NCBI GenBank assembly: GCA_002239025.1
Contig: MPNM01000008.1
Span: 1 to 47,195 of the forward strand
Source: Chloroflexi bacterium bin125
GTDB taxonomy: Bacteria > Chloroflexota > Dehalococcoidia > Bin125
DNA: 47,195 bases
Direction: 5' to 3'
The notes under the pieces are model-generated. The model saw only the letters and a program-made list of their open reading frames with translations, was not told the DNA's origin and did no database searches. Numbering within the stretch: position 1 is the stretch's first letter; every line of letters starts with the position of its first letter. Position numbers and translations under genes: made by a program. Below, in pieces: positions 8,872 through 42,658 of the stretch.

Positions 8872-9849
8872 GTGGTCAACTTTGGACTCACACTCTCGAA
8901 CCGCGGTGTCGTCACCGGCGCGTCAACGCTTGACGACATGATTGCCCTGGCCCAGCGAGCCGACTCCGATGAGCGCTGGGACAGCATCTGGGTTGGCGAC
9001 TCGATCCTGGCCAAGCCTCGGCTTGATGCACTGACGCTGATGGGCGCTCTGGCCGTGGTTACCGACCGCGTGCGGATTGGCCCTGCCTGCTTTGCCTCGA
9101 CGCCGCTGCGCGACGGCCTGCTGCTCGCCTATCAGTGGGCGTCGCTCGACTTCATGTCCAACGGCCGCACGATTTTCGCCGCCTGTATGGGGCAGGCCGC
9201 TCCAGGCGGCGGCGACATGCTGCACGAGTTCGAGGCGTTCTGCGTTGCGCCGGAGTCGCGAATGAAACGCATGGAAGAGGCAATCGAGGTCATGCGCCTG
9301 CTGACCTCGGAAGACAACGTCTCCTACCACGGCGAGTACAACGACTTCGACAACGTCACCATCGAGCCGCGTTCGGTCCAGCGTCCGGTGCCGATCTGGG
9401 TGACGTCGAATCCGCGCCCCGATCTCACCCGCAACCGCGAGGCGGGTCTGCGCCGCACAGCGAGGCTCGGGGACGGCTGGATGACGACATTCCAGCCACC
9501 GGCGATTGTGGAGGAATACCTGGCTGATATCCATCGCTACGCCGAGGAAGAGGGCCGGCAGCTCGGCGACGACTTCGAGACCTGCGTCTACTACAACATC
9601 AACGTCAATGACGATCGCCAGGCTGCCCTGGATGAGTCACGCCGCTACCTCGAGGCGTACTACACGACCACCTACACCGACGACGCCCTCAGCCTGTGGG
9701 TCGCCATGGGAACCCCCGACCAATGCATCGCCGACATCCAGAGATACGTCGACGCGGGAGCCACGACGATCACGCTGAGACTGGTCGGTTATGACCAGCA
9801 AGCCATGTACGACCGAGTCGTGAACGAGGTCCTGCCAGCGTTTGGCTAG
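8872..9849 (+). CDS. Luciferase-like flavin-dependent oxidoreductase (short form), tandem paralogue
   Basis: A 325-residue luciferase-superfamily protein, a close duplicate of the preceding gene (FGLTLSNRGVVTG, DERWDSIWVGDSILAKPRLD, VRIGPACFASTP, DGWMTTFQPPAIVEEYLADI). The GTG start at 8872 is supported by GGAGG 6 nt upstream. It differs by a short insertion around 'GQAAPGGGDMLHEFEAF' near residue 105. The TAG stop lies within CTAG, directly followed by an IS-end-like sequence, so the 3' end borders an old insertion. Probably cytoplasmic; substrate not deducible. Confidence 0.9.
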   Translation: MVNFGLTLSNRGVVTGASTLDDMIALAQRADSDERWDSIWVGDSILAKPRLDALTLMGALAVVTDRVRIGPACFASTPLRDGLLLAYQWASLDFMSNGRTIFAACMGQAAPGGGDMLHEFEAFCVAPESRMKRMEEAIEVMRLLTSEDNVSYHGEYNDFDNVTIEPRSVQRPVPIWVTSNPRPDLTRNREAGLRRTARLGDGWMTTFQPPAIVEEYLADIHRYAEEEGRQLGDDFETCVYYNINVNDDRQAALDESRRYLEAYYTTTYTDDALSLWVAMGTPDQCIADIQRYVDAGATTITLRLVGYDQQAMYDRVVNEVLPAFG

Positions 9850-9866
9850 GGCGTGTTCACATCGGC
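9846..9866 (+). mobile_element. IS-end-like remnant beside CTAG
   Basis: CTAG GGCGTGTTCACATCGGC. The first 17 nt match the putative IS5-type end at 111-127 (minus strand) with one mismatch. No transposase coding sequence follows here, so this would be a scar or a solo end. It starts exactly at the stop codon of the monooxygenase. Confidence 0.35.
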
Positions 9867-9895
9867 GCTGCGAACCCATGCAGCGCGCATACCCA

Positions 9896-9947
9896 CTCCC
9901 CGCTCCCCCTTGCAGGGGGAGCTGCCGAAGGCTGAAGGGGACCCCCC
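9896..9947. repeat. Dispersed GC-rich palindromic repeat, single copy
   Basis: CTCCCCC-TTGCA-GGGGGAGCTGCCGAAGGC followed by TGAAGGGGACCCCCC, the same unit as at 4865. It lies between the monooxygenase stop and the methyltransferase remnant. The rest of the gap from 9867 to 9985 shows nothing else recognisable. Confidence 0.7.
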
Positions 9948-9985
9948 GGCTTCCCACATAAGAACATCAGCACTACGCTATCGAC

Positions 9986-10327
9986 ATGTCAACTCTGAAC
10001 GTCGCCAGCCGAACCCTCTTTCACGGTGACAACCTGTTGTTCCTGAGGGGCATCAACTCCGGCATAATCCAACTGATCGCGACCTACCCGCCGTTCAACA
10101 AGAGTCGGGATTTCCGTGCGAGGCCGGGCTCTCTTGCCGCGGGCGCCAAGTTTGATGATTCGTTCAATGTCGGATTGGGGCACAGCACCCCGAGGTTGGA
10201 CGGTGGGATGAATCAAATCTCGAGTCAGTTGTTGCTTTGTGGGCCGTGTAATCGGATCAACTCGAATGGGCTAACGCTGAGCGGTCTACGGGCCGAGAAT
10301 CAGAGGCTTGGCCAGGTGACAGTCTAG
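9986..10327 (+). pseudogene. Remnant of a site-specific DNA methyltransferase, internally deleted, motif IV mutated
   Basis: A 113-codon open frame. Residues 8-57 look like the start of a family of site-specific DNA methyltransferases: RTLFHGDNLLFLRGINSG, then 'IATYPPFNKSRDF' and AAGAKFDDSF. The expected motif IV is DPPF; here it is YPPF, which removes the catalytic acidic residue. From about residue 75 the text jumps to 'LLLCGPCNRINSNGLTLSGLR', a zinc-ribbon/HNH-like segment that in this family lies much further on. A central deletion of roughly a hundred residues or more is therefore likely, as is loss of the C-terminal half. It is almost certainly inactive, and marks an earlier restriction-modification gene in this accessory patch. 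Confidence 0.7.
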
Positions 10328-32547: not shown

Positions 32548-35537
<2,990 letters not shown>

Positions 35538-40582: not shown

Positions 40583-41040
40583 GGCGCTCGTGTTGCGGAA
40601 AAAATCGGGGTCTGTGGGCGAATCTGTTGCTGAGGACTAGGTTTTGGGGCTTCAGGTATTCAAATCTGTCCGGATGCGGCTCGATTTGCCCAGGTTTCGT
40701 CAGCGTCGCTCCGGGGAGTTCTTGATTGATCCAGGAGGTCCGAAACAGGGCGGTGGGGCTGGTGAAATGCGATGTCGGCCACTCTGGATGGCGCAGCTTT
40801 TGGGACTGCATTCTGAGGGATGCACTGTGGGGTGGCCGGTATGTCGGGAGTGACGATCTGCCCCGAAAGAGTACATGTCCCACGAGGAGACGGGGTGAAG
40901 CGGCAAAACTCTGATTCGGCACCTGGCAGCCAGTCTTTGGTGGCTGTAGGTCTTGAGCGCGTGACCTGGGGGGCAAGGACGCTGGACATCGACGGCAAGG
41001 GTTCGGCATGACAGGCGGGGTGACCCTGATAGAGCTTTGA
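40583..41040. other. Gene-free stretch before the TIR-like gene
   Basis: About 460 bp with no reading frame that has both a ribosome site and protein-like composition. The frames that are open (40644-40853 forward, 40464-41129 reverse) are Arg/Pro/Ser-rich and look random. No tRNA, repeat arm or terminator was recognised. The position between tRNA-Glu and an accessory gene pair suggests it was brought in by insertion. Confidence 0.5.
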
Positions 41041-41069
41041 TAGACATGGAAATAGATGGCGGGTATATT
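41041..41069 (+). promoter_or_regulatory. Sigma-70-type promoter for the TIR-like gene
   Basis: TAGACA at 41041-41046, a 17-bp spacer, and TATATT at 41064-41069, each one base from consensus. Transcription would begin near 41077, about 18 nt before the GTG at 41095. The AAGGAGG at 41083-41089 is inside this short leader. It therefore rules out the ATG at 41056. Confidence 0.7.
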
Positions 41070-41094
41070 ATGCAGCAATGCTAAGGAGGCTGAC

Positions 41095-42204
41095 GTGGCA
41101 TTGCCGATTCGGACGACTCTCGAAGACATTGATGCTGTCTGCAGCTACTTGTCACGGAAACCTACGGGCGCCACTCTCGCTGAAGCGAGGGCGGTGGTGG
41201 ACAGAAAACACCTTGATGGTCGGAAGCTGTCTGGACTCAGGAGTTGGGGATTGATCGATTCCGACGAGGGCAAGCTCAAGATCACCGAACTTGGACGTCT
41301 TGCACTTCGCGATTCAGGAGCCTACAAAAGCGACGCTCTGCGGGAAGCAGTTCGCATCCTGACTCCGTATGCGGCAGTGGTCGAGCGAGTTGTGAACCGT
41401 CGCGAGGATTCGCTTACGGCTTCCGAGGTAGCTGCACACTGGCACGACAACTTTCGCGAGGAAGTGGCAGATTCCGAAACAACTCTGAATCTACAGGCCT
41501 TGTGTTTCTTCCAGATTGCACAGGGGGCTGACTTGGGAACTGCCGTGATCGGCCGCCGAGGGAGCGCAACACGATTTCAGTTTTCCTTGGAGGCGGCTGA
41601 AGCGTTCGTTGGCAATCTGGATTCAACAGCTGAACTCCGTTCGCCACACCGTTCCATAGAGCCCATGGTGGGTGAGGGTCTGGAGGAGCAAAAGTCGAGT
41701 GGTGCTTTAGCGGATACTGGGTCGAGAGAAACCGGATCTACGCGAGACTCTTCGCGAAGTGTCCCCGAAGGGACACGGATCTTCGTCTCCCATAGCGGTG
41801 ACGTGAAACTCTTGGAGGAATTGAAACAGATCCTTGACGATTGGCGTGTGCCTTACGTCAGTCTGGACGACACGATGGCGATAGGTATGCCGATTGCAGA
41901 GACCATCTCCGAAGAGATGCGAAGTTGTTCTGGTGCGATCATCGTTATCCCTCGCGGTTGGCAGGAGGCTGATCCTGGAGCCGAGAGTCGTTCGGTTATG
42001 GGGAGTGCAGAGACCGCGTACCTGTTGGGTGCCGCCTCGCTTCTCTATGGGCGGAAGATCGTGATCTTGAGAGACAGCGAATCGGCATTTGAACTAGGCC
42101 TTAGCGAACTCGAAGTCATAGAGTTCGACAACGATGGCATCCGGGCAGTCAAACTAGATCTCTTGGACAGAATGCTAGTCACGCAAATGGTGGCTGTGGT
42201 CTGA
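41095..42204 (+). CDS. Winged-helix plus TIR-like (nucleotide-binding) domain protein, candidate defence effector
   Basis: A 369-residue, two-part protein. Residues 1-75 (TTLEDIDAVCSYLSRKPTGA, 'LRSWGLIDSDEGKLKITELG') look like a winged helix, followed by a helical part to ~170 and a polar Ser/Thr/Glu linker to ~220. The rest (about 225-369) is a TIR-like nucleotide-binding domain: 'RIFVSHSGDVKLLEELKQIL', 'MRSCSGAIIVIPRGW', then 'GSAETAYLLGAASLLYGRKI', where the Glu matches the catalytic Glu of TIR NADases, and 'VILRDSESAFELGLSELEV'. GTG at 41095 with AAGGAGG 5 nt upstream. TIR domains of this type occur in CBASS/Pycsar and other phage defence; no cyclase is adjacent. A function in defence is inference. 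Confidence 0.75.
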   Translation: MALPIRTTLEDIDAVCSYLSRKPTGATLAEARAVVDRKHLDGRKLSGLRSWGLIDSDEGKLKITELGRLALRDSGAYKSDALREAVRILTPYAAVVERVVNRREDSLTASEVAAHWHDNFREEVADSETTLNLQALCFFQIAQGADLGTAVIGRRGSATRFQFSLEAAEAFVGNLDSTAELRSPHRSIEPMVGEGLEEQKSSGALADTGSRETGSTRDSSRSVPEGTRIFVSHSGDVKLLEELKQILDDWRVPYVSLDDTMAIGMPIAETISEEMRSCSGAIIVIPRGWQEADPGAESRSVMGSAETAYLLGAASLLYGRKIVILRDSESAFELGLSELEVIEFDNDGIRAVKLDLLDRMLVTQMVAVV

Positions 42205-42223
42205 GGGGGTAGGCGGAAGCGAC

Positions 42224-42442
42224 ATGTCTGGCACTAGACGCAGTCGCGAACAGAGCCGTCTCCAGGGATGGCACCGCGTTAGCAGGACGCTTGCGCCAGA
42301 CGTGATAGTCGTGTTGGCAGTCATTGCATATGTCCTAGTGGGACTTGATGTGCTGAACATAAACGGTCCCATTGAAGTTGGTGCGCCGTTCACGCTAGCG
42401 GCGCTCCTTTACAGACTGAGAGAGCGGAGAGTTCCCGATTGA
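42224..42442 (+). CDS. Small membrane protein paired with the TIR-like gene
   Basis: A 72-residue protein. A basic N-terminus (MSGTRRSREQSRLQGWHRVS) precedes a hydrophobic helix (DVIVVLAVIAYVLVGLDVL) and a second, weaker one (VGAPFTLAALLYRL), ending in a charged tail. It is probably a two-helix inner-membrane protein with both ends cytoplasmic. It lies 19 bp after the TIR-like gene with a purine-rich ribosome site, so it shares its transcript. No family recognised. Such a neighbour could be a membrane effector or an anchor for the TIR-like protein (inference). Confidence 0.6.
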   Translation: MSGTRRSREQSRLQGWHRVSRTLAPDVIVVLAVIAYVLVGLDVLNINGPIEVGAPFTLAALLYRLRERRVPD

Positions 42443-42507
42443 ACTGCACATCAGGATTCGTTTCAGTTTGGGAGTCGCGGGTTGCACACGAGGTTGAGCA
42501 CATTCCG

Positions 42508-42516
42508 TGCTACGAT
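42508..42516 (+). promoter_or_regulatory. Extended -10 promoter for 5S rRNA
   Basis: TG-C-TACGAT, an extended -10 with no clear -35. Transcription would begin near 42523, essentially at the mature 5S 5' end. The same TGnTACGAT occurs again before the S1-domain gene at 42723. Confidence 0.5.
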
Positions 42517-42524
42517 TTCTCTGA

Positions 42525-42641
42525 GCTGGTGATTGGAGCGCGGTGGCACCACCCGTTCCCATCCCGAACACGGAAGTGAAACGCCGCAGCGCCGACGATA
42601 CTGGGGGGGCAACCCCTTGCGGAAAATAGGCCATCGCCAGC
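42525..42641 (+). rRNA. rrf: 5S ribosomal RNA
   Basis: About 117 nt. GCTGGTGAT at the start pairs with ATCGCCAGC at the end. Loop B/C contains CACCACCCGTTCCCATCCCG and AACACGGAAGTGAAACG, the conserved 5S core. It stands about 7 kb after 23S with its own promoter and terminator, so it is transcribed separately. Confidence 0.95.
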
Positions 42642-42658
42642 TCGCTCTCTTCCTCCTT

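What the first reader, a model, noticed from the sequence alone, without database searches (positions are those of the whole stretch)
41041..42442. Winged-helix/TIR-like protein plus small two-helix membrane protein: candidate stand-alone defence pair
Seen: a strong own promoter, a 369-residue protein with an N-terminal winged-helix-like part and a C-terminal TIR-like domain keeping the Glu of 'SAETAYLLGAA', then 19 bp later a 72-residue membrane protein. The pair sits between tRNA-Glu/VOC and the 5S gene in a stretch unlike its neighbours. Known: TIR-like domains of this type are effectors in CBASS, Pycsar and related phage defence, and membrane proteins are frequent second components. No cyclase or nucleotide sensor is adjacent, so a two-gene architecture of HTH-linker-TIR plus small membrane protein would be new to me.
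Basis: partly seen in the sequence, partly recalled or inferred. Interest (0 to 1): 0.75.

Follow-up and report, generated by a model that had tools for sequence, protein, structure and literature searches.

The report
TIR protein with membrane partner gene
Two adjacent bacterial genes, an immune-type TIR protein and a tiny membrane protein, travel together as a probable anti-virus module, and the TIR part seems to have lost the residue it would need to destroy NAD.

Summary
The pair is real: a 369-aa winged-helix/TIR protein (41095-42204) and a 72-aa membrane protein 19 bp downstream (42224-42442). Low-confidence models match TIR folds, TIR-STING best. The association is conserved: five genomes in two families have the small gene directly after such a TIR gene, and a profile of these five found no further copy in 393 genomes of the class. 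The small gene goes with the TIR lineage, not the sensor: partnered G009 has a different N-terminal half, while relatives sharing the query's N-terminal half (62-64% identity) with another TIR (21-23%) lack it. In the genus the site is a cargo spot: five other genomes carry methyltransferases, an OLD-type nuclease plus HNH protein, or DUF4062. One reader claim fails: the Glu of "SAETAYLLGAA" is not the catalytic one. That position is Leu310, and Leu or Gln in two more of the five pairs, although the genes stay under purifying selection. Best reading: a stand-alone defence module whose TIR domain works with, perhaps as a scaffold for, the membrane protein. Defence is inferred from context, untested. 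New variant of a known kind; I saw no such two-gene architecture in the papers listed by my searches.

The parts
41041..41069 (+). promoter-like site TAGACA-17-TATATT (weak evidence)
   Evidence: 1 found, 0.7 expected in shuffles
41083..41089 (+). ribosome-binding site AAGGAGG, 5 bases before GTG 41095
   Evidence: read from sequence
41095..42204 (+). gene 1: 369-aa winged-helix / linker / TIR protein (P0001)
41119..41583 (+). N-terminal 'type 1' sensor-like half, residues 9-163: two predicted winged helices (9-63 and about 80-163); most conserved part of the protein
   Evidence: block means of pLDDT 54-84 over residues 11-170; 93% identity G011/G001, dN/dS 0.04
41611..41766 (+). linker, residues 173-224, low confidence in the model, poorly conserved
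41767..42201 (+). TIR domain, residues 225-369
42010..42012 (+).
42022..42024 (+). Leu310, at the position of the catalytic Glu of TIR-STING
42224..42442 (+). gene 2: 72-aa membrane protein (P0002), positively charged N-terminus, one clear TM helix, a second weaker hydrophobic segment
42293..42355 (+). main transmembrane segment, about residues 24-44
   Evidence: best 19-residue window starts at residue 28; limits set by eye
40860..42524 (.). approximate extent of the variable cargo: aligned upstream sequence of sister genomes is recognisable to about 40860 (by eye), then diverges; 5S gene begins at 42525

Best explanation
A stand-alone two-gene defence module. The N-terminal tandem winged helices (a DNA-binding-type fold) sense an infection cue. 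The C-terminal TIR domain then assembles and acts through its dedicated partner, the small membrane protein encoded 19 bp downstream, which most likely executes growth arrest or death at the membrane. Because the catalytic Glu position is Leu here and in G011, and Gln in G009, the TIR domain in these proteins probably works as a scaffold or switch and not as an NADase. Shown by computation: the genes, a TIR fold match of low-confidence models, the conserved pairing, the partner going with the TIR lineage and not the sensor, the missing Glu, purifying selection, and defence-type genes at the same spot in sister genomes. Inferred: sensing, assembly, contact between the two proteins, membrane killing, phage defence. 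The figure below is for the whole statement, scaffold step included; defence in some form I put at about 0.75.
For: Pairing: homologues of the small protein lie directly after a winged-helix/TIR gene in G000, G001, G011, G009 and G110. A profile of the four genus proteins alone found the G110 one at E 4.6e-10 as the only hit among 1879 six-frame stretches of ten relatives' loci. A profile of all five (which match it by construction) found no further copy at E under 0.003 in 393 genomes of the class, and none at 0.001 in 20 of the order and 44 of G110's family. Partner goes with the TIR: G009 has a different N-terminal half (25-27% identity to the three others of its genus) with a related TIR (41-46%) and the small gene; L001-L003 have the query's N-terminal half (62-64%) on a distant TIR (21-23%) and no such gene. 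On the TIR tree the type-1 proteins as one clade are rejected (AU p 5e-60); the five with a partner as one clade are not (p 0.31). Spot: G006 methyltransferase/type IIG-like, G005 OLD-type plus HNH, G010 and G013 DNA methylase, G002 DUF4062. Fold: TIR-STING best (E 1.3e-3; E 7.9e-5; Z 10.8, rmsd 3.5, 119 aligned). Relatives match PDC-S35 (G110 1.7e-18; L003 1.7e-13). Glu position.
Against: No functional test. The models are of low confidence (pLDDT 57.8, pTM 0.37; pLDDT 59.2, pTM 0.56), and no Foldseek match of the whole model is under 0.001. Two of the five paired TIRs (G001, G110) keep the Glu, so the scaffold idea cannot hold for the whole family without added assumptions. Three unpaired relatives (G138, G167, G292) also lack it, so loss of Glu is not tied to the partner. 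The best TIR tree does not itself unite the five: G110 sits with other proteins on a weak fork (80/82), and presence of the partner needs two changes on it. A second helix, and so a pore, is not certain. The query scores under the PF10137 cut-off; its best PADLOC match is a 30-residue one to CARF3--CARF_TM (0.0011), ahead of PDC-S35 (0.0047). Four of the five pairs come from one genus. G004 and G008 show no cargo that I could recognise by eye at the 5S side.
Confidence: 0.4

Rival explanations
1. TIR NADase with a membrane tether or brake: the small protein anchors or restrains the TIR protein at the membrane, and the TIR domain still consumes NAD+ or makes a nucleotide signal, with another residue (such as Glu306, one helical turn earlier) doing the work of the missing Glu.
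For: G001 and G110 keep the canonical Glu. Query and G011, which lack it, both have Glu at the -6 position. [quoted passage not shown]
Against: SfSTING has both Asn80 and catalytic Glu84 in its NADase site (passage of PMC9402430); query and G011 have neither. G009 has Gln and His there. No structure with ligand.
Confidence: 0.25
2. The TIR protein makes a nucleotide signal that opens the membrane protein, as in Thoeris with TM-macro effectors or in Panoptes/CBASS S-2TMbeta effectors.
For: Known pattern of TIR enzyme plus membrane effector (passages of PMC11204291) and of small 2TM effectors under nucleotide control (passages of PMC12657218).
Against: The small protein is about 57-72 aa (some starts set by eye), and the query's copy has no Pfam, NCBIfam, PADLOC or PHROGs match; G009's copy has only sub-cut-off Pfam matches (DUF5336 0.0037, DUF3311 0.068). 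There is no room for a macro, SLOG, CARF or beta-barrel sensor domain. The catalytic Glu is missing in three of five pairs.
Confidence: 0.12
3. A regulator, not a defence system: the winged helices bind DNA and the degenerate TIR is a ligand or protein-binding module that controls the small membrane protein or other genes.
For: Tandem winged-helix prediction with structural matches to DNA-recognition parts of FokI, N.BspD6I and BpuJI and to transcription regulators; related N-terminal halves occur without a TIR (L087-L089); the N-terminal half is the most constrained part.
Against: The site holds other defence-type genes in sister genomes; patchy presence (9 of 197 genomes with any match, own genome and TIR-only matches included; 4 of 15 in the genus) fits a dispensable module better than housekeeping regulation.
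Confidence: 0.15
4. Decaying relic: the TIR has lost catalysis and the locus is on its way out.
For: Missing Glu and Asn at the active site; TIR domain evolves faster than the N-terminal half (dN/dS 0.25-0.38 against 0.04-0.09).
Against: Both genes intact in four genomes of the genus and in G110, purifying selection on both in the genus, pairing kept.
Confidence: 0.07

Closest known systems
CBASS Cap12 / bacterial TIR-STING (SfSTING, ElSTING)
   Same: TIR domain of the PF10137 kind; best structural match
   Different: No STING or other cyclic-nucleotide domain recognised, no CD-NTase next door, catalytic Glu replaced by Leu, a membrane partner gene present
Pycsar PycTIR
   Same: Sensor domain plus PF10137-type TIR; the TIR of relative L001 aligns with PycTIR 8jsj (E 1.2e-4)
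   Different: N-terminal half is predicted winged helices and not a cyclic-nucleotide-binding domain; no cyclase next door
Thoeris with TM-macro ThsA (passages of PMC11204291)
   Same: TIR protein paired with a membrane protein
   Different: The membrane protein here has no macro domain; the TIR is of the PF10137 kind and lacks the Glu
Panoptes / S-2TMbeta and Cap15 effectors (passages of PMC12657218)
   Same: Two-gene system whose second gene is a membrane effector with a two-pass element
   Different: No beta-barrel sensor domain in the small protein; first gene is not a cyclase
GAP1-N1 conflict systems with TIR effectors and a 2TM SLATT protein (passage of PMC7159879)
   Same: TIR domain and a two-helix membrane protein in one system
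   Different: Those are GTPase-centred systems; no SLATT match in Pfam here, no GTPase next door
PADLOC candidate PDC-S35
   Same: Relatives' TIR parts match its models (G110 1.7e-18; L003 1.7e-13 and G001 6.2e-6)
   Different: Models are 231-278 aa and the matches cover only the TIR part here; the query matches weakly (0.0047) and G011 not at 1e-3. PDCs are described as mostly unvalidated single-gene candidates (passages of PMC12988326, which does not name S35)
Type IIS restriction enzymes FokI, N.BspD6I, BpuJI (recognition domains)
   Same: Predicted N-terminal half aligns with their DNA-recognition parts (1fok Z 10.3, rmsd 5.8, 184 aligned; 2fok Z 10.1, rmsd 4.5, 176; 5liq Z 9.0; 2vla Z 8.2)
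   Different: No sequence match in the PDB search; a methyltransferase chain (3dp7) also scores Z 9.7; tandem winged helices are common; no nuclease domain

Membership tests
TIR domain fold | TIR-like alpha/beta fold | tested here: met
   Foldseek best matches TIR-STING, E 1.3e-3 for the whole model and 7.9e-5 for the domain alone; VIA Z 10.8, rmsd 3.5, 119 aligned. Models are of low confidence.
PF10137 CAP12/Pycsar TIR | score over the curated cut-off of 24.7 bits | tested here: not met
   Query 19.8 bits, 21.7 in the genome search; paired relatives G001 36.9, G009 26.3, G110 67.9 are over it, G011 had no match at 0.001. G009 scanned as a protein gave 23.4
NAD+-cleaving TIR | catalytic Glu at the Glu84 (SfSTING) / Glu86 (ElSTING) position | tested here: not met
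   Leu310 in the query; Leu in G011, Gln in G009, Glu in G001 and G110 (position fixed)
NAD+-cleaving TIR | NAD+ hydrolysis | not testable with these tools
   needs protein
CBASS | CD-NTase in the same operon | tested here: not met
   neighbours are tRNA-Glu, a glyoxalase/VOC gene, 5S and an S1-domain gene; the three SMODS hits of the genome are on contig C15, the window is on C22
Pycsar | adjacent pyrimidine cyclase and a cyclic-nucleotide-binding domain in the effector | tested here: not met
   the nearest protein genes on either side are of other families; no CNBD match by Pfam. Rest of the genome not searched for PycC
Thoeris, TM-macro type | membrane effector with a macro domain | tested here: not met
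   72 aa, no Pfam match
PADLOC PDC-S35 | match to the family's models | tested here: inconclusive
   query E 0.0047, G011 none at 1e-3, G001 6.2e-6, G009 7.5e-4, G110 1.7e-18; no curated cut-off shown
FokI-like DNA-recognition domain | shared fold of the N-terminal half | tested here: inconclusive
   VIA Z 10.3 but rmsd 5.8; no sequence match
Anti-phage defence system | conserved linkage with defence genes | tested here: inconclusive
   the same chromosomal spot carries other defence-type genes in 5 of 15 genus genomes, this kind of pair in 4, nothing recognised in 2, not readable in 4. These are alternatives at one site, not neighbours in one genome. DUF4062 (G002) had no PADLOC match; G010 and G013 are anchored at the 5S side only
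Anti-phage defence system | protection against phage | not testable with these tools
   needs an assay

The most novel reading that the evidence does not exclude
A bacterial immune module in which a TIR domain has given up enzyme chemistry and works purely as an assembling switch, as TIR scaffolds do in animal signalling, to fire a dedicated small membrane protein, while interchangeable DNA-recognition-type sensor halves are swapped onto the TIR/membrane pair.
Probability: 0.25. Interest if true: 0.8.

Novelty: new variant of a known kind. Interest (0 to 1): 0.6.

Why it matters
Bacterial TIR domains in defence are best known as enzymes (my own knowledge, in line with the passages). A conserved pair whose TIR lacks the catalytic Glu in three of five copies yet stays under selection, and whose membrane partner goes with the TIR and not the sensor, would be a direct test case for non-enzymatic TIR signalling in bacteria. 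The sensor half, if it recognises DNA, would also be an unusual trigger. The natural Glu-keeping and Glu-lacking versions make the question testable.

Tried and rejected
Mobile or phage origin: no relative of the TIR protein in plasmids or phages, none of the small protein in plasmids (phages not searched with it), and none confirmed in viral contigs by pattern scans. PHROGs gave only weak matches (0.032 for the TIR protein, 0.064 for G009's small protein). Sequence searches for solved relatives of the whole protein gave nothing, and those with the two kinds of N-terminal half gave E 0.35 or worse. CBASS in trans: the genome has three SMODS genes on contig C15, one with a patatin gene and one with a Cap17-like gene; set aside as unneeded, not excluded. 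Assembly error at Leu310: unlikely, as G011 has Leu there too. Promoter strength: no better than shuffles.

Limits. The five small proteins match profile A2 by construction, and one search scored at most 15 candidates per genome; its 15 further hits (E 0.0034 to 0.05) were not inspected. Searches scored all candidates in 20 and 44 genomes. L003's contig ends 383 bases after its TIR gene. In the survey of 29 PF10137 places 28 were read (L061 was not) and only hydrophobic ORFs starting from -40 to +250 bases were screened; four have the small gene (G000, G001, G009, G110), three others (L065, L066, L070) have longer hydrophobic ORFs unlike it. The Glu-position count covers 14 proteins, the query included: 12, G292, G489; left out were G475 (L090), a TIR fragment with the Glu, and PF10137 proteins with other N-terminal parts. 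A tally of Glu changes gave 2 as the fewest on an unrooted tree, so I claim no number of independent losses. The TIR tree has long branches (G138, G167). dS is near or above 1 in several pairs, so ratios are rough; one linker value could not be computed. The label 'defence-type' for G006 rests on PADLOC (MTase_II 8e-9), its Pfam matches being below cut-off. Confidence: drafted as 0.5, now 0.4, only so that the alternatives add up to one; in the same check I set the 'linkage' row to inconclusive.

Literature: no paper on this two-gene architecture stood in the listings; one search was a search for inactive TIRs and for guilt-by-embedding. PDC-S35 is in no held paper. The library lacks most subscription journals. 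What I saw: passages only of PMC12988326, PMC13142454, PMC11204291, PMC12421889, PMC11224242, PMC12657218, PMC9402430, PMC7159879; all others only as search listings.

Full report
What is there. The coordinates are right. Gene 1 runs from GTG 41095 to 42204 (369 aa), with AAGGAGG five bases before the start; gene 2 is 42224-42442 (72 aa), 19 bp later. The pair lies between a tRNA-Glu and glyoxalase/VOC gene and the 5S gene, beyond which is an S1-domain gene. Its GC content (0.54-0.56) is lower than that of its surroundings (0.58-0.67). Both genes are under purifying selection in G011/G001.

Anatomy. Pfam gives PF10137 at E 8e-4 (residues 228-285, below cut-off), PF09821 at 3.3e-5 (50-131, below cut-off) and TIR_2 at 0.04. 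The structure model (pLDDT 57.8) shows two winged helices (9-63 and about 80-163), a low-confidence linker and a TIR-like domain. TIR-STING is the best Foldseek match of the whole model (E 1.3e-3) and of the domain alone (7.9e-5; VIA Z 10.8, rmsd 3.5, 119 aligned). The N-terminal half aligns with the DNA-recognition part of FokI (Z 10.3, rmsd 5.8, 184 aligned); N.BspD6I and BpuJI also appear, but so does a methyltransferase at Z 9.7. This is a lead, not proof: tandem winged helices are common and sequence searches found nothing.

The Glu. In ElSTING the catalytic residue is Glu86 (PMC12421889, passage) and in SfSTING Glu84, with Asn80 also in the NADase site (PMC9402430, passage). Among 14 winged-helix/TIR proteins, the query included, the position is Glu in 8 (G001, G110, L001, L002, L003, G182, G170, G489), Leu in 3 (query, G011, G167), Gln in 2 (G009, G138) and His in 1 (G292). 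Of the five with the membrane partner, two keep it (G001, G110). The TIR domain is still constrained (dN/dS 0.26 in G011/G001) but less than the N-terminal half (0.04).

The partner. The small protein has homologues directly after the TIR gene in G001, G011, G009 and G110. A profile of the four genus proteins, G110 held out, found the G110 protein at E 4.6e-10 as the only hit at E up to 10 among 1879 stretches of ten relatives' loci; the other nine (L001, L002, L003, G182, G170, G138, G167, G292, G489) gave none. A profile of all five, which match it by construction, found no other hit better than 0.0034 in 393 genomes of the class (at most 15 candidates scored per genome). Scoring all candidates gave only the known ones: 4 of 20 in the order and 1 of 44 in the family of G110.

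Shuffling. There are two kinds of N-terminal half, distantly related over one winged-helix stretch (hhalign probability 91%, 61 columns). The query and L001-L003 share 62-64% there but only 21-23% in the TIR; G009 is the reverse (25-27% to the other three of its genus against 41-46%). The TIR tree rejects one clade of type-1 proteins (AU p 5e-60) but not one clade of the five partnered ones (p 0.31), although the best tree puts G110 elsewhere on a weak fork. The partner gene therefore goes with the TIR lineage and not with the sensor half. I take this as the best evidence that the small protein works with the TIR domain.

The spot. Among 15 genomes of the genus: this kind of pair in 4 (G000, G001, G011, G009), after the VOC gene; a 937-aa methyltransferase/type IIG-like protein in G006, an OLD-type ATPase/TOPRIM plus HNH-type protein in G005, DUF4062 plus an aspartyl-protease-like protein in G002; a DNA methylase just before the 5S in G010 and G013 (these two gave no VOC match, so the site is fixed from one side only); nothing recognised by eye in G004 and G008; not readable in G014, G012, G007 and G003 (contig ends or no anchor). 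Aligned sequence after VOC is recognisable to about 40860 and then diverges. In G110 the pair lies between PheT and MoeA genes, with no cyclase seen.

Reading. The simplest account is a stand-alone defence module: winged-helix sensor, TIR switch, membrane partner. For the query and two relatives the missing Glu makes an NADase effector unlikely, so I favour the membrane protein as executioner and the TIR as scaffold. I give 0.4 to this whole statement and about 0.75 to defence in some form. Against it: two of five pairs keep the Glu, unpaired relatives also lose it, the second helix is doubtful, the models are weak, and four of five pairs are in one genus.

Known or new. Each element has precedents: TIR-STING, PycTIR, TM-macro Thoeris, small 2TM effectors, TIR effectors with a 2TM SLATT protein in GTPase systems, and PADLOC's candidate PDC-S35. 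Defining features of CBASS, Pycsar and TM-macro Thoeris were tested and not met. I saw no description of the two-gene architecture in the listings. I rate it a new variant of a known kind.

Noticed in passing
G000 contig C15: 24379-27050, 20322-22066, 14430-15488 (locus L096): Three SMODS (CD-NTase-like) genes within about 13 kb: one after a patatin gene, one before a Cap17-like gene, one with a sub-cut-off tRNA nucleotidyltransferase match. The genome thus has CBASS-type loci apart from the window.
   Followed up: partly
window 32548-35537 and 42525-42642: The 23S gene and the 5S gene are about 7 kb apart, and no 16S gene was found in the window: split rRNA genes.
   Followed up: no
L087, L088, L089: Stand-alone proteins of about 250-280 aa with a type-2 winged-helix half and no TIR: the sensor half exists on its own.
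   Followed up: partly
L032 (G002), L029 (G014), L097 (G013): An aspartyl-protease-like ORF sits at the cargo spot in G002 (PF13975); similar-looking ORFs were read by eye in G014 and G013 but not tested.
   Followed up: partly
L016 (G110), 9084-10223: The pair in another family keeps the motif QNVIYELG with both Asn and Glu and has the strongest PDC-S35 match seen; it may be the best version for enzyme assays.
   Followed up: partly
L098 (G004) and L099 (G010), some kilobases before the 5S gene: A 307-aa ORF that looks by eye like a XerC-type tyrosine recombinase lies on the far side of the spot in both genomes; whether it has to do with the cargo is open.
   Followed up: no
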